From Propioniciclava flava (GTDB lineage: Bacteria > Actinomycetota > Actinomycetes > Propionibacteriales > Propionibacteriaceae): a DNA stretch of 64,000 nt. Below, one piece after another: positions 1 through 6,837 of the stretch; the first letter of the stretch is position 1, and every line of letters starts with the position of its first letter. The notes beneath the pieces are model-generated. The model was not told the origin of the DNA. It did no database searches and saw nothing but the letters and a program-made list of their open reading frames with translations. A program made the translations under genes and the position numbers. The stretch is from assembly GCF_004126535.1 (NCBI RefSeq), contig NZ_PPCV01000001.1:434001-498000 (forward strand). The letters run 5' to 3'.

Positions 1-187
1 TCGAACGCTCGTTCTTTCCCGAGGGGAAATCCAGTACGGCGTCGGAGGTGCCATTATATCTCTCTCCGACGAGCAAGCCGAGTACGACGAAACCGTGGTC
101 AAAGCTCGCCCTCTCCTCCACGTCCTCCGCGACACACCCTTTCCCGAAGGACTAGATCCTGCGAACCCTACCGGAGAGGCACTCTGA
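1..187 (+). CDS. pabB: Chorismate-binding enzyme, C-terminal end (aminodeoxychorismate synthase component I, PabB-like); partial
   Basis: Only the last 61 codons are in the window; the gene starts to the left. The readable part holds the final motif of chorismate-using enzymes (YGVGGAIISLSDEQAEYDET, about residues 12-31 of the fragment), followed by a short helix and a stop. In this family (TrpE, PabB, MenF) the YGVGGAI form of this last strand is typical of PabB, which aminates chorismate to 4-amino-4-deoxychorismate with a glutaminase partner. The stop codon overlaps the start of the following PabC-like gene by one base (TGATG), so the two are translationally coupled, which supports PabB over anthranilate synthase. 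The glutaminase subunit or domain is not visible. Codon use is more A/T-rich at third positions than the core genes after 5230. Confidence 0.82.
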   Translation, partial: RTLVLSRGEIQYGVGGAIISLSDEQAEYDETVVKARPLLHVLRDTPFPEGLDPANPTGEAL

Positions 188-987
188 TGCCCGTCTGGAC
201 CTGGAACACCGAACGCGCCACATTCGACCCTGTAGAAAGTGCCGGGCCACTCCTACTGGCAGACTCCTGGTACTTGCGCGAAGGTCGGGTCAGGGCGCTA
301 CCCCGGCATCGGGCTCGGTTCGCTGCTGCCGCGCAACAGCTAGAACTGCCCAGTCCCGACGCACCGGAGATCTGGTCGCAGATCGTAGATCTGCTGCCCC
401 CTACCGGTGAGTGGTTTCCTCGAATCGAATTCGTGGGCGGAGCCCAGCCAACGTTAGGGATCCGGCCTCGCCCCGCCCCGGCACGCACACAGGAAATCAG
501 CGTATGGGTGCCAGCATTCCCCGACATCCGCCGGTCACCCCACTTCAAAGGCCCAGACATCGAACGGCTTGAAGATCTCCGCATGCACGCTCGGGACAAA
601 TTCGGATGCCAGGAAGTCCTCCTCCTTAGCCCAGATGGGTACGTCATCGAAGGTGCGACATCCAACATACTTTGGTGGGAGAACGGCAAGATCTGCGTGC
701 CCGACATCGACCTTGAGCCATTTTCTGGAATTACCACAACGTTGTTACAAGAGGAAGCGCGTTCATGTTCCCTTCCCGTGGAACACCGAAGAGCTGTGCC
801 CGACGACCTCAAGGACAAAGAAGTGTGGATGCTCAACGCCCTGCACGGAGTTCGCCGTGTCGCCCGATGGTCAGGATCGACAACGGCTCCGTCCACCCCG
901 CCGTCGTTCTGGACCTGGCGCGAGTGGCTGGATTCGCTCATGGTTAACGTCGCGGGAGGAAGGCAAACTCACGATGCCCTCGACTAG
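187..987 (+). CDS. pabC: Class IV aminotransferase-fold enzyme, aminodeoxychorismate lyase-like (PabC)
   Basis: A 266-residue PLP-dependent fold-type IV protein. Lys121 in HFKGPDIERL is the expected Schiff-base lysine, and EGATSNILWW (about 155-164) is the phosphate-cup motif common in actinobacterial PabC and branched-chain aminotransferase relatives. Family knowledge and the coupled upstream pabB point to the lyase reaction: 4-amino-4-deoxychorismate to 4-aminobenzoate plus pyruvate. A purine-rich GGAGAGG ends about nine bases before the ATG, whose first base is the last base of the upstream stop. The 3' end overlaps the next gene by 14 bases. The pair could feed folate, but the downstream hydroxylase and methyltransferase suggest a dedicated 4-aminobenzoate supply. 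A D-amino acid or branched-chain aminotransferase role is less likely. Confidence 0.8.
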   Translation: MPVWTWNTERATFDPVESAGPLLLADSWYLREGRVRALPRHRARFAAAAQQLELPSPDAPEIWSQIVDLLPPTGEWFPRIEFVGGAQPTLGIRPRPAPARTQEISVWVPAFPDIRRSPHFKGPDIERLEDLRMHARDKFGCQEVLLLSPDGYVIEGATSNILWWENGKICVPDIDLEPFSGITTTLLQEEARSCSLPVEHRRAVPDDLKDKEVWMLNALHGVRRVARWSGSTTAPSTPPSFWTWREWLDSLMVNVAGGRQTHDALD

Positions 988-2209
988 GAGTTCTTCTGCG
1001 CCTAAGAAACAACAGAGTGGCACCTCCCCGTTCCCTCGTCTTGACGCCGAACGGAAGACGCAAGTATGCATCATAGGAGCGGGGCCAGCCGGCCTCACGG
1101 TGCATCAAGCGATGGCACAGATCGGTGTAACGTCCGTCGTTATCGAGGCTCGATCACGACAGTATGTCCAGAACCGAGTCCGCGCAGGTCTAGTTGAGCC
1201 TGGGACTGTGCGCATACTAGACGATCTAGGCGTCGGTCAGAAGCTTCTTCGCGACGCAGCCTGTCACAAAGGCTTGCTGCTCCAACTCGACGACACTTCG
1301 GCACGGGTACCCTTCGGTGACATCACCGGCGAGCCAGTCTATATGTATCCCCAGCAACACATAGTCCGCGATCTCATTTCAGCCTCTGACCCGCAACGCA
1401 TTCTGTTCGATACGGAGGCAGTGAACGTCGAAACTGGTTCCTTAGATGCCGCAGTAACAGTCAACCATGCCGGACGACACTTCCGCGTGAAATGCGACTT
1501 CATTGTGGGCGCCGACGGTGCCCATGGAGCATCCAGACGCTCCCTACCCGACGAACGGAAGAAGTCCTACGAGCGAGATTATGGTATCGACTGGTTAGGC
1601 ATCCTTGCAGAAACCGCACCCCTCGCCGACGAACTTATATATTCTTGCTCGGCCCGCGGATTCGCGCTCCACAGCATGAGGGGCGAGTCCCAAAGTCGGC
1701 TCTACTTGCAGGTCCCCCGCGGGTCCAGTCCCTCGTGGACAGACGACCGGATCTGGCAGGAACTTGACTATCGTCTCTCTCCCGGAGCGGCTCGCATCCG
1801 TCGAGGAGACATCACTGAACGCACAGCGGTGAAACTCAAAGCGTTTCAGCTCGAGAACCCACAGTATCGAAGGCTCTTCCTGATCGGCGATGCTGCGCAT
1901 ACGGTACCTCCCAGCGCGGCAAAAGGGTTGAATCTAGCCGTTGAGGACGCGGCGTGCCTGGCACAGGCCTTGTGGGCTTGGTACCAGGACCACGAACGAG
2001 GTGGCCTCGATCGATACGCCTCCAAAGCCGCTCAAAGAGCCTGGCTGGCGCAGATGTTCTCCGCCGAGATGACCCGCCTGCTTCATGTGCTGCCAGGCGA
2101 CACACAGTTCGATACGAAAACGAGGACCGCCCGATGGCAGCGGATTGTCGACAACCCAATCGCTCTCAGAGATTTCGCCGATCACTACGTCGGCATCGCC
2201 CGAAGGTAA
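974..2209 (+). CDS. FAD-dependent aromatic hydroxylase, 4-hydroxybenzoate 3-monooxygenase (PobA) family
   Basis: A 411-residue class A flavoprotein monooxygenase. GAGPAG at 35-40 binds the FAD ADP moiety, a DG motif lies near 181, and GDAAHTVPP at 305-313 is the second FAD motif. Lined up by eye with PobA, the substrate pocket is kept: Tyr223 (Tyr201 in PobA), Ser234, Arg236 and Tyr244 (the carboxylate clamp Ser212/Arg214/Tyr222), Pro313, Asn320 and Tyr405 (Tyr385). This argues for a para-substituted benzoate substrate. With pabB and pabC upstream, 4-aminobenzoate giving 4-amino-3-hydroxybenzoate is the likely reaction; 4-hydroxybenzoate to protocatechuate is the classical alternative. The ATG at 974 follows a strong GGAGGAAGG about ten bases upstream. 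Earlier in-frame codons run through pabC and are not used. Confidence 0.85.
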   Translation: MPSTRSSSAPKKQQSGTSPFPRLDAERKTQVCIIGAGPAGLTVHQAMAQIGVTSVVIEARSRQYVQNRVRAGLVEPGTVRILDDLGVGQKLLRDAACHKGLLLQLDDTSARVPFGDITGEPVYMYPQQHIVRDLISASDPQRILFDTEAVNVETGSLDAAVTVNHAGRHFRVKCDFIVGADGAHGASRRSLPDERKKSYERDYGIDWLGILAETAPLADELIYSCSARGFALHSMRGESQSRLYLQVPRGSSPSWTDDRIWQELDYRLSPGAARIRRGDITERTAVKLKAFQLENPQYRRLFLIGDAAHTVPPSAAKGLNLAVEDAACLAQALWAWYQDHERGGLDRYASKAAQRAWLAQMFSAEMTRLLHVLPGDTQFDTKTRTARWQRIVDNPIALRDFADHYVGIARR

Positions 2210-2322
2210 CCGGCCCGCGTGGATGACCAGACTTCACGGCTACGGATACCAGACCGCTGTCGCGTTACCAGCAAACCAACTAACAAACGATCTGCGTCGT
2301 TGACGAACGGAGGAAGAACGCG

Positions 2323-2799
2323 ATGAAGAAGCCATTGCACGTGCTCACCCTTGCGGCGATCATCGCCCACCACGGGATCGAGGCGGCGGCGGGGATCGGG
2401 GTGCCTGGGGAGCCATACATTGGTCGGCGCCGTGCCACCTTCCTGTGGACGGCCGTCTTCGCCGGAAACGCGTATGCGCTCACTCGTAAAAGCAGAGAAC
2501 TCGGGCTCCTGACCGCATTCGCGAACGGTGCTTACCAGGCTCTCGCTCTACAGCACTATATTGACTGGCCGTGGAGGTTGCGTAAGGGAGTCCCGATTAT
2601 TCAGGAGGCCGAGGAACTCCCTGAACGCTGGTTACCTGCCTACAACACGGCACTCCTCGTGGCCACAGGGCTTTCGTCAGTAGCCTGCTTGCGAGAGCAG
2701 GGTCCTGGCGCCAGAAGGGCGCACCTCCTTGGACTGGTGACCTTGCCATGGCAACTTGCCTCGGCGAGACGTCATCAGCAGTGGCTCCAAGCCCAATGA
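2323..2799 (+). CDS. Small multi-pass membrane protein, function unknown
   Basis: A 158-residue protein I do not recognise. Four or five hydrophobic stretches (roughly residues 7-25, 38-54, 62-78, 104-122 and 130-145) alternate with basic loops, so it is probably an integral membrane protein. Conserved-looking polar residues inside or near the segments include His16-His17 with Glu20, and an HYIDWPW stretch near 78-84. A clear GGAGGAAG lies 8-12 bases before the ATG. It is 113 bases downstream of the PobA-like hydroxylase and in the same orientation. It could be an exporter accessory, a membrane-bound hydratase or isomerase, or simply a passenger. The HHGIE stretch recalls HXXEE-type membrane proteins but is too weak for an assignment. 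Confidence 0.7.
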   Translation: MKKPLHVLTLAAIIAHHGIEAAAGIGVPGEPYIGRRRATFLWTAVFAGNAYALTRKSRELGLLTAFANGAYQALALQHYIDWPWRLRKGVPIIQEAEELPERWLPAYNTALLVATGLSSVACLREQGPGARRAHLLGLVTLPWQLASARRHQQWLQAQ

Positions 2800-2900
2800 T
2801 CCGTCGCTTCCGTCCAACTCCTCGGCTCCGCTGCGACGTCGAACTTCATGTCTAGACTGGCGGGCCCCTTCCAACCCCTGTGAAGCCTGGCCGCCACTTT

Positions 2901-2932
2901 GCTGGGTTGCACCGCCAAGCAACGCCCCAGCA
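2901..2932 (+). terminator. Possible intrinsic terminator hairpin
   Basis: GCTGGGTTGC (2901-2910) can pair with GCAA (2919-2922) and CCCAGC (2926-2931) around an eight-base loop, with a three-base bulge on the 3' side. It lies in the 196-base gap after the small membrane protein and before the methyltransferase, and would separate two transcription units. There is no T-run, so it may only be an RNA structure. Nothing else was recognised in this gap. Confidence 0.35.
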
Positions 2933-2995
2933 CCCTAATCAGTTACAACCTAGTGTGTATTGCTTCGCCACTGGAACTCGGGTAGCGTGCGTCAC

Positions 2996-3793
2996 ATGAA
3001 GCCGGAGCAAGCAGACTCGCGCCACAACTACGCGTTTCGTGACAACGCGTCAGCGAGTCAGCGCCTTGATACGCTCGACGAGATGTTCGGGGAGTCGAGC
3101 CGAGAGTTCGTGTCAACGTACCCCAACCGAGGAACCAAGTTGGCCCTTGACTTAGGGTGTGGGCCAGGGCACACCACTCGGCTTCTCGCTGAGTCTCTCC
3201 GTGCCCAGAGGACTGTAGGCGTTGACCAATCAGAGGTTTATGTACAGAACGCGAGAGCAAGGTATCCAAATCTAGAGTTTCAGTCCCTGGATGTCACGCG
3301 CGAGATGCCTCTTCCGCCAGCGAACGTCATATACGCGCGCTTTCTCCTCAGCCACTTACCCGACCCGTTGGAGCAAGTCGTCCACTGGTCGAGGCATTTA
3401 GCGCGCGCCGGTGTGGCGCTACTTGAGGAAACTCAATCCATCGAGCCTCTGGACCAGGGCTCACGTCCTTACCTGGAGTTGCAGAAGTCATTGGTTGACC
3501 ACCATGGAGGGACGCTTTTCGTTGGGCCGGTTCTCGAGCAGTTGAGTGAAATTGCGGAGCTTGAGGTGTTCCACGATGAGATCCAGTCAGTCACGCCTCC
3601 CGGCCGCTTGGCGGGGCGGTCATTCTCGCTCAATTTGCAAGCGTGGTCGGATGACGCCTTTGTTCGGCAGCTGCATTCTCCGCGCGAACTCGACCGGCTA
3701 AAGGATAGAGTTCACGCCCTCACTAGCTACGGTGCGAGCCCCGTGGCGAGATGGAGTATCAGGCAGATCATGATTCGTAGGAGAATAAATTGA
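2996..3793 (+). CDS. Class I SAM-dependent methyltransferase
   Basis: A 265-residue protein with a Rossmann methyltransferase fold. Motif I is LALDLGCGPG (about 49-58), followed by an acidic end of strand 2 in GVDQSE. The N-terminal part (residues 1-45) is helical and probably caps the substrate. This fold is shared by O-, N- and C-methyltransferases, so the acceptor is not set by sequence; the hydroxylated aminobenzoate from the neighbouring hydroxylase is the obvious candidate. The ATG at 2996 was chosen over a TTG at 2960 because similarity begins after it; no strong ribosome site is seen before either. The 3' end overlaps the following gene by four bases (TTGA), which implies co-translation. 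Confidence 0.85.
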   Translation: MKPEQADSRHNYAFRDNASASQRLDTLDEMFGESSREFVSTYPNRGTKLALDLGCGPGHTTRLLAESLRAQRTVGVDQSEVYVQNARARYPNLEFQSLDVTREMPLPPANVIYARFLLSHLPDPLEQVVHWSRHLARAGVALLEETQSIEPLDQGSRPYLELQKSLVDHHGGTLFVGPVLEQLSEIAELEVFHDEIQSVTPPGRLAGRSFSLNLQAWSDDAFVRQLHSPRELDRLKDRVHALTSYGASPVARWSIRQIMIRRRIN

Positions 3794-4890
3794 CCCTAAG
3801 TGCACTGAGATTCGGCGCTTTCATATCACCCTTTCATCCGCTGGGAAGAAGCCCGACACTAGCGATGGCACGAGATCTTGACCTAGTCAGGCATCTGGAT
3901 GATCTTGGATTCGACGATGTGTGGATCGGGGAACACTACTCGGGCGGCTGGAGCATCATCAGTGCCCCGGAGATGTTCTTGGCGGCCGCCGCGAGCCAGA
4001 CAAAGCGAATAGGCCTTGGGACAGGTGTCGTAAGTTTGCCGTACCACCACCCATTCCAAGTAGCCAGCCGGATCGCTCAACTCGACCACCTCAGTCGCGG
4101 GCGCGCAATCCTTGGTCTCGGCGCCGGAGTAAGTAAAGCCGACGCGCAGATGCTAGGGATCGATCCGGAAACGCGCTGGCGGCGCATGGATGAAGGTATC
4201 GACGCCGTCAAGCGGCTTCTCAGCGGAGAGGAGCCCGTATCTGTGTCCACCGACTGGTTCTCTCTCGATCGGGCAGAGTTGCAGCTCCTCCCGCTACAAG
4301 CGAATATTGAGATCGCCGTGGCAAGCAACTACTCGGAGAACAGCATGCGTCTCGCTGGTCGCCACGGACTTAGTCTCCTCGCTCTCGGAGGGTTTCTCCC
4401 CGGAGGGCCGAAGGTTGACCTGGAACAACGATGGAGAATCGCAAAAGAGTCTGCGGCACAGCACAGCACCAACGTCTCCCGAGACGGTCTGAGCATTGTC
4501 CTGCCCGTCCACCTCGCGGAAACTCGCGATCAGGCGTTCCAAGATGTCCGTACAGGCGCCGAAAGTTGGCTGTTCGATTATTTCCACGACACTCTGGGCG
4601 CTCCGGTGCGTCAATCCACGCCACCAGGCCGTGAAGTCGAGGAACTTGTCGACCAAGGCGGCGCGATCATCGGCACACCGGAAGACTGCATCACCGCTAT
4701 TAAGACACTGTACAATCAGAGCGGAGGGTTTGGGCGATTCTTGACCGTGGTTCTTGATTGGACTACTCAAGCAAAACAGTGGGAAAGTTTCAATCTTATG
4801 GCAGAAGAAGTCGTCCCGCACTTCTCGCCTTCTTCGTTGGACTCATTGCGTCGAGGGCAGCTCCGTGCGGCGCCTGGGACCAACAGTTGA
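3790..4890 (+). CDS. LLM-class (luciferase-like) flavin-dependent oxidoreductase
   Basis: A 366-residue (beta/alpha)8 protein of the bacterial luciferase family. Family features are the N-terminal FGAFISPFHPLG strand, GFDDVWIGEHY (about 40-50), the IGLGTGVVSLPYHHPFQVA strand-turn (about 74-92), LDHLSRGRAILGLGAG, and a conserved RWRRMDEG. Members use FMNH2 or F420H2 for hydroxylation, epoxidation, Baeyer-Villiger or N-oxidation chemistry, and the cofactor cannot be told here. The start is TTG at 3790, overlapping the methyltransferase stop by four bases, so it is translationally coupled. It is the last gene of the plus-strand locus. It may carry out a second oxidation of the aromatic intermediate, for example at the amino group, but this is inference. 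Confidence 0.88.
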   Translation: MTLSALRFGAFISPFHPLGRSPTLAMARDLDLVRHLDDLGFDDVWIGEHYSGGWSIISAPEMFLAAAASQTKRIGLGTGVVSLPYHHPFQVASRIAQLDHLSRGRAILGLGAGVSKADAQMLGIDPETRWRRMDEGIDAVKRLLSGEEPVSVSTDWFSLDRAELQLLPLQANIEIAVASNYSENSMRLAGRHGLSLLALGGFLPGGPKVDLEQRWRIAKESAAQHSTNVSRDGLSIVLPVHLAETRDQAFQDVRTGAESWLFDYFHDTLGAPVRQSTPPGREVEELVDQGGAIIGTPEDCITAIKTLYNQSGGFGRFLTVVLDWTTQAKQWESFNLMAEEVVPHFSPSSLDSLRRGQLRAAPGTNS

Positions 4891-5172
4891 TCTACTAGGG
4901 TCTCGACTTTACCGAGCGAGTTTCCACTAGACCCCGTTGTTCCACGTGGATGAAGTTTATTTGGTTCCACAAGGCGGGTTGAGCCGGTGAGGCCAGACAC
5001 GCTTAAGCGCTGACCACCGCAGACTTCGGTTCAATTCTGGTATCAGCACGCATACTGCACTGATGTGTGGGTATGAGGTCCGATCGCGCCACATCAAGCG
5101 GTGCTCCGGCGTCTGCGAACCGAGGGACCTGATGAGTTCAGCAACTCCGAGGTGCCCGAAACGTGCAACGCC
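4891..5172. other. Intergenic stretch between the oxidoreductase and the cut ABC-F gene; no gene recognised
   Basis: About 280 bases with lower G+C than the core and stops in all frames at short spacing. A GGGTCT/AGACCC pair (about 4900-4935) could form a weak hairpin after the oxidoreductase gene, and a CCACGTGG palindrome lies near 4943-4950. A GGTTCAATTC near 5030 resembles a tRNA T-loop, but the flanks do not fold. No integrase, transposase fragment or clear direct repeat was recognised. Confidence 0.6.
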
Positions 5173-6678
5173 TCAGCCCACAGCCCCCAGTCGTAGTAGA
5201 CTGAAAGCGCAAACACTCGGCATACCGCCTAGATCCTGGCTCGGCTCATCCAGGATGAGAAGCTGAGGCGCTGGCTCCGCCAACAGCAGCACCGCCAAAA
5301 CGGCGCGGAACCGTTCACCACCCGACAACGACCCCACCTGCTGCTCCACGATCCGCCCCCGTAGGCCGAAGGCAGCCAGGCGATTGCGCAGGTCACGATC
5401 CTCCACGTGCGGCGCCCGCAGCGTCAGCGCGGTCAGCACGGTCTCCTCATCACTCAAGGGATCAAGCCGCTGGGGGACGTAGCCGACCCGGTCGGTGGTG
5501 AGCACCCCCGACGCGGTGAGTCGCGACGGTTCACCGCTGACCAACGATGCCAGCAGCGTCGTCTTGCCCACCCCGTTAGGGCCGACGATCGCCACACGCT
5601 CGGGTCCAGCGATGATGGGCCGTTGATGGGCCCCGTTCAACTCCGCCAGGCGGCGCCCCGAACCGACATGGGGGTCGGGCAGCACCAACGTCAGTTCCTC
5701 ACTCACGCGCACCCGGGACTGCGCCTCACTCAAGGCGGCCTCGGCGGCAGCCTCGCGTGCCGCCAGCGTCGATCGGTCACCGGCCTGCGCCTTCTCGGCG
5801 CGGTTTTGCCGATAGTCCATCACGACAGGAAGGACGCCTGACTCACGTTGCGCCTTCCCGTGACGCACCGAACGCGCTTGCCGGGTCTGAGCCTCGATGC
5901 GCTGGTGACGTTCGGTGCGGAGGCGTTGCTCGGCCGTCCGCACGGCTTGCCGAGCAGCCTGTTGCGTTTGCTCTTGGGCCTGGAGGAACGCGCTGTACCC
6001 CCCGCCGAACACGGTGAGGGCGCCGGAACTCAGTTCAGCCGTGGCATCCAGCGTGTCGAGCAGGGTGGTGTCATGGCTGGAGATGAGCAGGGTCCCCTTC
6101 CAGGAGGCGATCAGCCCCATCAGTCGGTGCCGGGCGTCCGCGTCGAGATTGTTGGTCGGCTCGTCCAGCACGACCACCGGAGTACGCGCCAATTCCAGCC
6201 CGACCAGGGCCGTCAGGATCGCCTCGCCACCCGAGAGCGTGCCAATCGGCCGCCGCAGGTCAGGGGCGGGCCCCAAGGTAGCGACGACGGCAGCCAGGCG
6301 CGCGGCCGCCCGATCAGGGGCGTCCCAGGCATCCCCGATGGCGTCGAAGTGTTGCGGATCAGGATCGCCCGCCTCGATGGCGTCCAGGGCGCGCAGGATG
6401 GGACCGACGCCGAGGAGGTCAGCCACCGACGCGGCGGTATCCAGCACAAGGTTCTGTGGCAGGTACCCCACGGGGGCGTCCGCGTGGATGGTGATGCTGC
6501 CTCGCGTGGGCGACAGTTCTCCCGCGATCAAGCGCAGCAACGTGGACTTGCCGACGCCGTTGGCGCCGATCAGCCCGGTACGACCACCACTGAAAGCGGC
6601 GGTCAAGGAATCGAGGACCGTGTCAGCGCCGGGGTAGGCGAAGCTCAGGTCGGATACAACGATGGCAGGGTAAGGCAA
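5173..6678 (-). CDS. ABC-F family ATPase (ribosome protection type), 3'-truncated at a sequence junction
   Basis: Two ABC domains without membrane segments. Domain 1: Walker A GANGVGKST (38-46), signature LSGGE (148-152), Walker B LDEPTNNLD (171-179) and switch SHD (201-203). A basic/coiled linker spans about 235-330. Domain 2: Walker A GPNGVGKTT (366-374), LSGGE (451-455) and LDEPSQDL (476-483). The sequence then changes to an unrelated 18-residue tail and stops, so the D-loop and histidine switch of domain 2 are missing. ABC-F proteins of this kind bind the ribosomal E site and protect against antibiotics or aid translation; this copy is probably inactive. The TTG at 6678 was chosen because GGGAG lies six bases before it and homology starts there; a GTG at 6729 is in frame but lies in the leader. 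Base composition is core-like. Confidence 0.85.
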   Translation of the reverse strand: MPYPAIVVSDLSFAYPGADTVLDSLTAAFSGGRTGLIGANGVGKSTLLRLIAGELSPTRGSITIHADAPVGYLPQNLVLDTAASVADLLGVGPILRALDAIEAGDPDPQHFDAIGDAWDAPDRAAARLAAVVATLGPAPDLRRPIGTLSGGEAILTALVGLELARTPVVVLDEPTNNLDADARHRLMGLIASWKGTLLISSHDTTLLDTLDATAELSSGALTVFGGGYSAFLQAQEQTQQAARQAVRTAEQRLRTERHQRIEAQTRQARSVRHGKAQRESGVLPVVMDYRQNRAEKAQAGDRSTLAAREAAAEAALSEAQSRVRVSEELTLVLPDPHVGSGRRLAELNGAHQRPIIAGPERVAIVGPNGVGKTTLLASLVSGEPSRLTASGVLTTDRVGYVPQRLDPLSDEETVLTALTLRAPHVEDRDLRNRLAAFGLRGRIVEQQVGSLSGGERFRAVLAVLLLAEPAPQLLILDEPSQDLGGMPSVCAFSLLRLGAVG

Positions 6679-6684
6679 AGGAAT

Positions 6685-6726
6685 CTCCCGACGTTCAGCG
6701 AAAAAGGGGATGCGCTGAACAACGAG
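6685..6726 (-). promoter_or_regulatory. Leader hairpin 3:4 masking the ABC-F ribosome-binding site
   Basis: On the minus strand GTTCAGCG (6720-6713) pairs perfectly with CGCTGAAC (6700-6693) around a loop containing CCCCTTTTT. The stem can extend outward past a U-U mismatch so that bases 6724-6726 and 6723 pair with 6687-6690. This covers most of the GGGAG (6689-6685) used by the TTG start. It is the expected off-state of a translational attenuator. Confidence 0.55.
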
Positions 6727-6731
6727 CACAG

Positions 6732-6766
6732 CTCGACGTCAGCGCGGGTTAGCGGCTGATGTCGAG
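6732..6766 (-). promoter_or_regulatory. Leader hairpin 1:2 overlapping the leader peptide
   Basis: CTCGACATCAGC (6766-6755), inside the leader peptide, pairs with GCTGACGTCGAG (6743-6732): 11 of 12 positions pair, with one A-C mismatch and an 11-base loop that includes the leader stop codon. The 3' arm with its preceding C (CGCTGA, 6744-6739) can instead pair with TCAGCG (6718-6713) of the next hairpin. The two pairings exclude each other, as in erm-type attenuators. Confidence 0.55.
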
Positions 6767-6775
6767 ATCTGTCAT
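6749..6775 (-). CDS. Putative 8-residue leader peptide (MTDLDISR) upstream of the ABC-F gene
   Basis: A tiny reading frame, ATG at 6775 to TAA at 6749, lies about 27 bases after the predicted transcription start. Its middle codons form arm 1 of the leader hairpin, so a ribosome stalled there would open that hairpin. Stalling leader peptides of this size precede erm and several ABC-F resistance genes. No strong ribosome-binding site is visible before it, which is the main weakness. Whether it is translated is unproven. Confidence 0.45.
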   Translation of the reverse strand: MTDLDISR

Positions 6776-6808
6776 CACGCGTCCGATCGTCGGGAATGGG
6801 ACGCCCTT

Positions 6809-6837
6809 AGTATGGCCCACACCGTGACCACTGCCAA
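6809..6837 (-). promoter_or_regulatory. Sigma70-like promoter for the ABC-F leader
   Basis: Read on the minus strand, TTGGCA (6837-6832) and CATACT (6814-6809) are separated by exactly 17 bases: five of six and four of six matches to the -35 and -10 consensus. It sits in the gap after the convergent-side end of hisS (same strand, stop at 6870) and points into the leader peptide and ABC-F gene. Transcription would start near 6802. Confidence 0.5.

What the first reader, a model, noticed from the sequence alone, without database searches (positions are those of the whole stretch)
6676..6837. Candidate ribosome-stalling translational attenuator controlling an ABC-F gene
A promoter (TTGGCA-17-CATACT), an 8-codon leader peptide MTDLDISR, and four pairing arms: arm 1 (6766-6755, inside the leader) with arm 2 (6743-6732), and arm 3 (6720-6713) with arm 4 (6700-6693, stem extending over the GGGAG at 6689-6685). 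CGCTGA of arm 2 can pair instead with TCAGCG of arm 3, freeing the ribosome site. This is the classic erm-type 1:2/3:4 versus 2:3 design, which several ABC-F resistance genes also use. The leader sequence is not one I know. It would be a drug- or stress-sensing switch, now attached to a truncated gene.
Basis: partly seen in the sequence, partly recalled or inferred. Interest (0 to 1): 0.78.

Follow-up and report, generated by a model that had tools for sequence, protein, structure and literature searches.

The report
Translational attenuator before split ABC-F gene
A short leader reading frame and a foldable RNA sit before a ribosome-protection-type (ABC-F) gene and probably switch the gene on when an antibiotic stalls ribosomes on the leader; relatives of this switch occur before many related genes, but here the gene itself has been cut in two by an inserted mobile element.

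Summary
In detail: promoter, leader ORF MTDLDISR*, four arms and SD are where stated. Comparison with 125 upstream regions of ABC-F relatives supports a conserved leader attenuator. With starts chosen by SD alone, the CGC-TGA stop is in frame at 34 of 42 qualifying loci (expected 14). Arms 2:3 and 3:4 covary over 50 loci. Arm 1:2 is strong in the window but poorly supported elsewhere. An unexpected further helix is supported as strongly as 2:3: the leader's early codons are complementary to the gene's own ribosome-binding site ('1:4'). Own pairs beat swapped pairs in long-leader (n=66, none dropped) and short-leader (n=47) loci; three controls are near null. Four of 97 spacers hold a T-run, so control looks translational. 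Best model: a ribosome stalled at the leader start frees the SD; one finishing the leader, or none, leaves it hidden. Equilibrium folding does not show this cleanly, and in the window alone 1:4 is marginal. Closest known: uORFs of Streptomyces are5sc/tiaA/lmrC and clostridial cplR. The gene is not simply truncated: a 34.65-kb integrated element appears to split it. New variant of a known kind; function untested.

The parts
6809..6837 (-). promoter: TTGGCA (6837-6832), 17 nt, CATACT (6814-6809); start of transcription expected near 6802
   Evidence: read directly; -10 to leader start 39 nt, and 39-44 nt in 32 of the 40 best-scoring loci listed (of 95 scored)
6787..6802 (-). 5' box GUCCCAUUCCCGACGA at the expected mRNA start, similar in many relatives; role unknown; in the window its UUCCCGAC can pair with the SD region
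   Evidence: motif search over up to 85 nt upstream of leaders; folds
6749..6775 (-). leader ORF MTDLDISR*
   Evidence: read directly; nearest relative L002 has MTDLDTSR*; frame test over relatives 34 of 42
6755..6766 (-). arm 1 (leader codons 4-7); pairs with arm 2, or with arm 4 plus SD
6732..6745 (-). arm 2 including GCGCUGA (6745-6739); pairs with arm 1 or arm 3
6712..6720 (-). arm 3; pairs with arm 4 or arm 2
6693..6700 (-). arm 4; pairs with arm 3, or with the leader
6685..6699 (-). main ribosome-binding region (arm 4 + GGGAG 6689-6685) complementary to leader 6767-6755 ('1:4', duplex -17.3 kcal/mol, pairs reach 6686)
   Evidence: window duplex; family-level swap tests; in the window alone 11 of 200 leader shuffles are as good and swap rank is 0.122
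5249..6678 (-). 5' piece of the ABC-F gene from TTG 6678; homology ends at the second Walker B motif
   Evidence: 67% identity to intact L002 (536 aa)
5173..5248 (-). unrelated in-frame tail and stop contributed by the inserted sequence; border 8-mer TGAGCCGA at 5248-5241

Best explanation
It is a translational attenuator of an ARE-type ABC-F gene. Supported by sequence comparison: a translated-looking leader ORF near the 5' end; an SD that can be hidden either by a local hairpin (3:4 with an anti-SD) or by a long-range helix with the leader ORF itself (1:4); and an alternative 2:3 helix whose arm 2 lies at or just after the leader stop codon. Inferred: with no drug, ribosomes run through the leader to its stop, cover arm 2, and 3:4 forms; naked RNA is also closed (1:2+3:4 or 1:4+2:3). 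A ribosome held at the leader start by a drug that blocks the first peptide bonds (lincosamide, streptogramin A or pleuromutilin type, by analogy with Streptomyces) covers the leader arm but not arm 2, so 2:3 stays, 3:4 and 1:4 cannot form, and the ABC-F SD is exposed. The leader's amino-acid sequence would then matter little. In this genome the output gene is split by an integrated element, so the switch probably no longer yields a working protein.
For: ABC-F relatives at E <= 1e-60 in 103 of 198 family genomes. Of 125 upstream regions read, 109 distinct loci have a leader by my rules. Frame test with start chosen by SD only: 34 of 42 in frame, binomial P 3e-10. Covariation over 50 loci: 2:3 86.2% of cells paired, 11 cells changed on both sides, 0 of 500 shuffles; 3:4 77.4%, 20 cells, 0 of 500. 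Swap tests: leader:RBS 0 of 5000 for 66 class-A candidates with none dropped (z -7.8) and for 109 loci of both classes (z -12.5), and for 47 class-B loci (z -8.3); 2:3 (z -8.2) and spacer:SD (z -5.0) also 0 of 5000 on all 66. Controls on thinned sets (43 and 36 loci), leader:ORF, leader:spacer and upstream:RBS, gave z between -1.6 and 0.7. In a clade of 10 short-leader loci (of 12 grouped) the leader:SD helix shows 5 two-sided cells, 1 of 500 shuffles. T-runs of 4 in 3 of 50 and 1 of 47 spacers. Streptomyces uORFs before ABC-F genes stall at the start codon with LSAP drugs and not erythromycin (PMC12421871, passages).
Against: No experiment. Equilibrium folding does not give a clean ON state: masking the leader start raised SD exposure by about 0.05 (long leaders) and 0.10 (short leaders) in one scheme and not at all in another; in the window SD exposure went from 0.18 to 0.06 or 0.22 depending on the footprint assumed, and the 3:4 fold stays slightly favoured (-32.6 against -30.6) with the leader start masked. 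A fixed-register pairing scan was null: the register varies among loci. For the window itself 1:4 is marginal, and its leader has a weak SD (3-nt match). For 3:4 the count of pairs with two-sided changes is ordinary (217 of 500 shuffles) and the version slid by +3 comes near (55.4% paired, 17 two-sided cells); for the clade of 10 it is 71 of 500. The 15 tiaA-type loci that I could read showed no leader:RBS signal (own -23.6, swapped -23.9, 2124 of 3000; a second window 2964 of 3000; five or six main starts there look wrong).
Confidence: 0.68

Rival explanations
1. Classic erm-type attenuator: 1:2 and 3:4 in the uninduced RNA, 2:3 when a ribosome stalls part-way along the leader because of its nascent peptide.
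For: 1:2 and 3:4 form the MFE of the window; 1:2 region reached by 2 of 1000 shuffles; 2:3 and 3:4 covary.
Against: 1:2 is weakly supported across relatives (179 of 2000 and 61 of 2000 swaps reach it); leader peptides differ greatly in sequence and length and are often three codons, which does not suit a peptide-specific stall; the leader:RBS helix, not part of this design, is supported as well as 2:3.
Confidence: 0.17
2. Transcription attenuator: stalling on the leader prevents a terminator, as mapped for lmrC and proposed for are5sc.
For: Described for lmrC with terminator mutations and RT-PCR (PMC8546547, passages).
Against: T-runs of 4 or more in only 3 of 50 long-leader and 1 of 47 short-leader spacers; the window's T5 lies in the 3:4 loop, not after a stem. 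Rho-dependent termination was not tested.
Confidence: 0.1
3. Decayed or chance structure: the element no longer does anything because the gene is broken.
For: The gene appears split; the window's branch is longer than its sister's (0.46 against 0.24; the window row includes the unrelated tail, which may add to this).
Against: Leader, arms and SD are intact and match family constraints; the fold beats all 200 shuffles. Loss of output does not make the element unreal.
Confidence: 0.05

Closest known systems
Streptomyces coelicolor are5sc and tiaA 5' UTRs (uORFs MLV, MRS, MVGDDDISG; PMC12421871, passages seen)
   Same: ABC-F gene, short uORF near the 5' end; translation fusions induced; toeprint stall at the uORF start codon. 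Loci with MLV* and MAGDDDISG* leaders turned up among my relatives. For tiaA the paper found the transcription fusion constitutive and only the translation fusion induced.
   Different: The paper models terminator/antiterminator switches; the loci that I counted rarely have T-runs and pair the leader with the SD. In three Streptomyces/Saccharopolyspora relatives (L033 MRI*, L037 MLI*, L038 MLV*) the leader's best complement lies about 120-140 nt before the gene, not at its RBS.
Clostridioides difficile cplR leader (PMC10201436, passages seen)
   Same: Three-codon uORF; main SD sequestered; translational attenuation shown to suffice.
   Different: There the SD sits in an intrinsic terminator hairpin with a poly-U tract; none seen in the window.
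Streptomyces lincolnensis lmrC (PMC8546547, passages seen)
   Same: LSAP-sensing uORF before an ARE5 ABC-F; loss of the uORF start gives strong constitutive expression, as expected if finishing the leader represses.
   Different: Acts through a mapped transcription terminator.
erm and cat-86 type translational attenuators (recalled)
   Same: Leader stall frees a sequestered SD; erm has four arms, cat has the anti-SD arm within or next to the leader.
   Different: Macrolide or chloramphenicol stalls part-way along a specific peptide; here the pairing covers the leader start region and peptides vary.

Membership tests
uORF-controlled ARE ABC-F gene | downstream gene is an ABC-F protein | tested here: met
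   two ABC ATPase stretches (Pfam); best NCBIfam NF000355 ribosomal protection-like ABC-F but 242.6 bits against a cut-off of 380. Of six intact relatives L004 309, L010 328 and L038 335 are below it, L032 393 above, L002 and L115 gave no family at E <= 1e-90
uORF-controlled ARE ABC-F gene | short translated leader upstream | tested here: met
   sequence evidence only: frame test 34 of 42, promoter-leader spacing
uORF-controlled ARE ABC-F gene | drug-dependent ribosome stalling and induction | not testable with these tools
   needs toeprinting and reporters
erm-type four-arm attenuator | 3:4 hides the SD and 2:3 is an alternative | tested here: met
   covariation; spacer:SD swap test 0 of 5000
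erm-type four-arm attenuator | 1:2 pairing conserved | tested here: inconclusive
   179 of 2000 (20 leaders of up to 8 codons) and 61 of 2000 (30 longer leaders) swaps reach the observed mean
erm-type four-arm attenuator | peptide-specific stall inside the leader | not testable with these tools
   peptide diversity argues against
intrinsic-terminator transcription attenuator | stem followed by U-tract before the gene | tested here: not met
   4 of 97 spacers hold a run of 4 T; the window's lies in a loop
any Rfam 15 family | match at gathering score | tested here: not met
   0 matches in the whole window

The most novel reading that the evidence does not exclude
A lineage-wide class of start-stall sensors in which the leader ORF is itself the antisense strand of the resistance-type gene's ribosome-binding site: leader and RBS co-evolve locus by locus, the peptide is irrelevant, and any drug that freezes initiating ribosomes exposes the SD without a terminator.
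Probability: 0.45. Interest if true: 0.6.

Novelty: new variant of a known kind. Interest (0 to 1): 0.48.

Why it matters
In the papers that I saw, ABC-F resistance genes are described mainly with terminator-based attenuators. A terminator-less design in which the leader codes for its own anti-RBS arm would explain why three-codon and thirteen-codon leaders with unrelated peptides do the same job, and gives a sequence signature (leader:RBS complementarity) for finding drug-inducible resistance-type genes. It also makes a clear prediction: induction at the translation level by start-stalling drugs.

Tried and rejected
Rfam scan: nothing. Gap-free fixed-register pairing scan of leader against RBS: null for the registers -14 to +11 tried; kept as a result against a rigid helix. 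Virtual-ribosome folding scans: weak or no effect. In one search I forced a wrong 2:3 register (off by one); one search replaces it. In one search the 1:4 register forced (6768-6764 with 6683-6687) is not the one of the best duplex (6767-6755 with 6699-6686), so its -46.9 is for one register only. Alignment A4 of a second clade (7 loci) was not counted because the SD columns were out of register. Extension to tiaA-type leaders: pattern found in 1 of 396 phylum genomes and a shorter pattern in 63 of 246 genomes of one genus (not checked for an ABC-F gene beyond the loci below); of 28 loci given to the script (26 from these searches plus L032 and L043) 15 could be read, and they showed no signal, although L032 and L043 alone are reached by 23 and 46 of 1000 shuffles. 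RNA model R1 in 57 family genomes: 15 with a match at E <= 0.01; in the own genome one hit at 6.6e-5, which is in the seed, the rest above 0.1; the hit L222 shows no ABC-F among its listed ORFs by eye and I take it as chance. WhiB7-type AT block: 0 of 7 A/T upstream of -35 in the window; over 89 promoter-like loci the mean is 0.37 against 0.33 background, so no general enrichment. Paper searches: six; no paper held the words Propionibacteriaceae, ABC-F and leader together, which is only a word search of that library.

Selection told: 66 class-A candidates (6-18 codons, 65-140 nt before the gene) were listed; for 15 loci I named the leader by hand in the script (one of them set to none). Sixteen were then dropped by eye because the wrong ORF was picked, the leader was really short, or the arm motifs were missing or irregular, leaving 50. 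One search repeats the swap tests with all 66, and gives the 16 dropped alone (leader:RBS z -2.3, 66 of 5000). Class B (47) was picked by rule; a few of its members are doubtful ORFs (for example L016, L018, L038, L131, L188). The tree holds only the 51 loci whose whole gene was fetched.

Full report
What is there. The 143-nt RNA folds better than all 200 shuffles (z -3.3). Taken apart, the 1:2 region is matched by 2 of 1000 shuffles and the 3:4 region by 16 of 1000. No Rfam family matches.

The gene. The downstream ORF is an ABC-F protein. Its best NCBIfam model is the ribosomal protection-like ABC-F family, below the curated cut-off; of six intact relatives one is above, three below, and two gave nothing at E <= 1e-90. 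Its nearest relative is L002 (67% identity, 536 aa, same genus). In a tree of the 51 loci with a whole gene, the window and L002 sit in a clade of 33 rows (100/99), 26 of which are among my 50 long-leader loci, apart from a clade with Streptomyces, Micromonospora, Nocardia, Gordonia and short-leader loci (midpoint root, no outgroup).

Leaders in relatives. A family-wide search found a match at E <= 1e-60 in 103 of 198 genomes. I collected 125 upstream regions. Leaders fall into two kinds: mostly 6-13 codons in the long-leader loci (for example MTDLDTSR*, MLIFERLAASITR*, MYADSSSAATQR*, MTDLIGTAPLR*) and three or four codons (MKL*, MTD*, MDL*, MSN*, MLV*). By my rules 109 distinct loci of 125 have one, but three-codon ORFs are common by chance, so I tested translation otherwise. 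Choosing the start only by SD strength, the first CG(C/T)T(G/A)A downstream is in frame at 34 of the 42 loci that qualify (binomial P 3e-10). In the 50 long-leader loci 36 end in CGC and 47 stop with TGA. The -10 lies 39-44 nt before the leader start in 32 of the 40 best-scoring loci listed.

On a MAFFT alignment of 50 long-leader loci the 2:3 helix has 86.2% of cells paired and 11 cells changed on both sides (0 of 500 shuffles), and falls to 19-46% when slid by one to three columns. The 3:4 helix has 77.4% and 20 cells (0 of 500), though its count of pairs with two-sided changes is not special (217 of 500) and the version slid by +3 comes near it (55.4%, 17 cells). RNAalifold on my own alignment of the same loci picked the 2:3 helix. 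Swap tests, in which each locus's arm is paired with another locus's partner, agree for 2:3 and for spacer:SD (0 of 5000 on all 66 candidates). Arm 1:2 is not clearly supported (179 of 2000 and 61 of 2000).

The unexpected helix. I had meant leader:SD as a negative control; it gave a signal about as strong as 2:3 (both 0 of 2000). A two-dimensional swap map shows in both classes an antidiagonal between leader positions about +2 to +20 and the region -26 to -4 before the gene (z down to -6.7). With leader -6..+26 and RBS -28..+4 the own pairing beats all 5000 permutations: long leaders n=50 z -7.9, thinned to 33 z -6.2; short leaders n=47 z -8.3, thinned to 29 z -6.7. Leader against coding sequence, leader against spacer and upstream against RBS are near null on thinned sets (long/short z 0.2/0.7, -0.5/-0.9, -1.0/-1.6). 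With nothing dropped, 66 loci give z -7.8 (2:3 gives -8.2), and 109 loci of both classes z -12.5. In ten short-leader loci of one clade the stop-codon side of the leader pairs with the SD with A-U, G-C, C-G and G-U types at one pair (5 two-sided cells, 1 of 500 shuffles; pairs with two-sided changes 71 of 500). One striking example: L008 pairs the leader start region with the gene's start region in 19 base pairs. The register varies among loci, and a fixed-register scan was null. For the window alone the helix is only marginal (11 of 200 shuffles; swap rank 0.122), although its duplex energy, -17.3, matches that of 1:2.

How it would work. Arms 1 and 3 both carry UCAGC and arms 2 and 4 both carry GCUGA, so 1:2+3:4 and 1:4+2:3 are alternative closed forms. 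In the window they fold to -53.6 and, in the one register forced, -46.9. A ribosome ending the leader covers arm 2, leaving 3:4. A ribosome frozen at the leader start covers arm 1, which removes 1:2 and 1:4 and leaves arm 2 free to take arm 3; the SD is then exposed. [quoted passage not shown] The drug class here is inferred from those cases only. Equilibrium folding does not reproduce a clean ON state, so co-transcriptional order or other effects would have to matter, or the model is incomplete.

Transcription or translation. Runs of four T occur in 3 of 50 and 1 of 47 spacers, so an intrinsic terminator is not a shared feature. This differs from lmrC, are5sc and cplR as described. In three relatives (Streptomyces L033 and L038, Saccharopolyspora L037) the leader's best complement lies about 120-140 nt upstream of the gene and not at the RBS, while in Gordonia L035 and Nocardia L036 it lies at the RBS (24 and 20 of 1000 shuffles as good). 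For tiaA-type loci the RBS test was negative.

The broken gene. The homology stops at the second Walker B motif. A 61-aa frame on the same contig and strand matches the missing C-terminal part of L002 at 64%, and the two borders share the 8-mer TGAGCCGA at the matching codons, 34,652 bp apart; that word alone is weak evidence, since it occurs 5 times in the window and other 8-mers are shared too. Between the borders are a large serine recombinase next to one of them, a TrwC relaxase, transposase-like ORFs (by eye), and a chorismate-using synthase with an aminotransferase, FAD and luciferase-like monooxygenases, methyltransferases and an MFS exporter. G+C in window 1-5240 is 0.588 against 0.674 beyond the border. 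I described the pieces apart and did not join them.

Verdict. A real, conserved attenuator; new variant of a known kind. What is shown is comparative; drug response and the order of folding are inferred.

Noticed in passing
window 1-5248 and G000:C11:404589-439248 (L224, L225): A 34.65-kb integrated element with a large serine recombinase, TrwC relaxase and a chorismate-derived biosynthetic gene set appears to split the ABC-F gene at its Walker B codons; TGAGCCGA at both borders.
   Followed up: partly
window 6802-6787 and upstream of leaders in many relatives: Conserved box close to GUCCYRUUSCCGACGA at the expected mRNA 5' end, before the leader SD, also in family f2 and Nocardia L036 and, by eye, Streptomyces L038; no explanation.
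   Followed up: no
L011-L015, L017, L147, L156, L166 upstream of -35: AT-rich block (GGAAAA-like in some) just before the -35 in several relatives, resembling WhiB7/WblC promoters (name recalled); absent from the window, and not enriched over all loci.
   Followed up: partly
L124 upstream of ABC-F: The SD hairpin looks duplicated in tandem, giving two SD/start-like sites after one leader.
   Followed up: no
L196 and L204 upstream of leader: What looks like a tRNA-Asn gene (by eye, no tRNA scan run) lies a few dozen nt before the MKL* leader.
   Followed up: no
L031 (Ancrocorticia populi): An Actinomycetaceae ABC-F with leader MLIYDLLDAPTAR* nests among f1-family loci in the tree, suggesting gene transfer together with its leader.
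   Followed up: no
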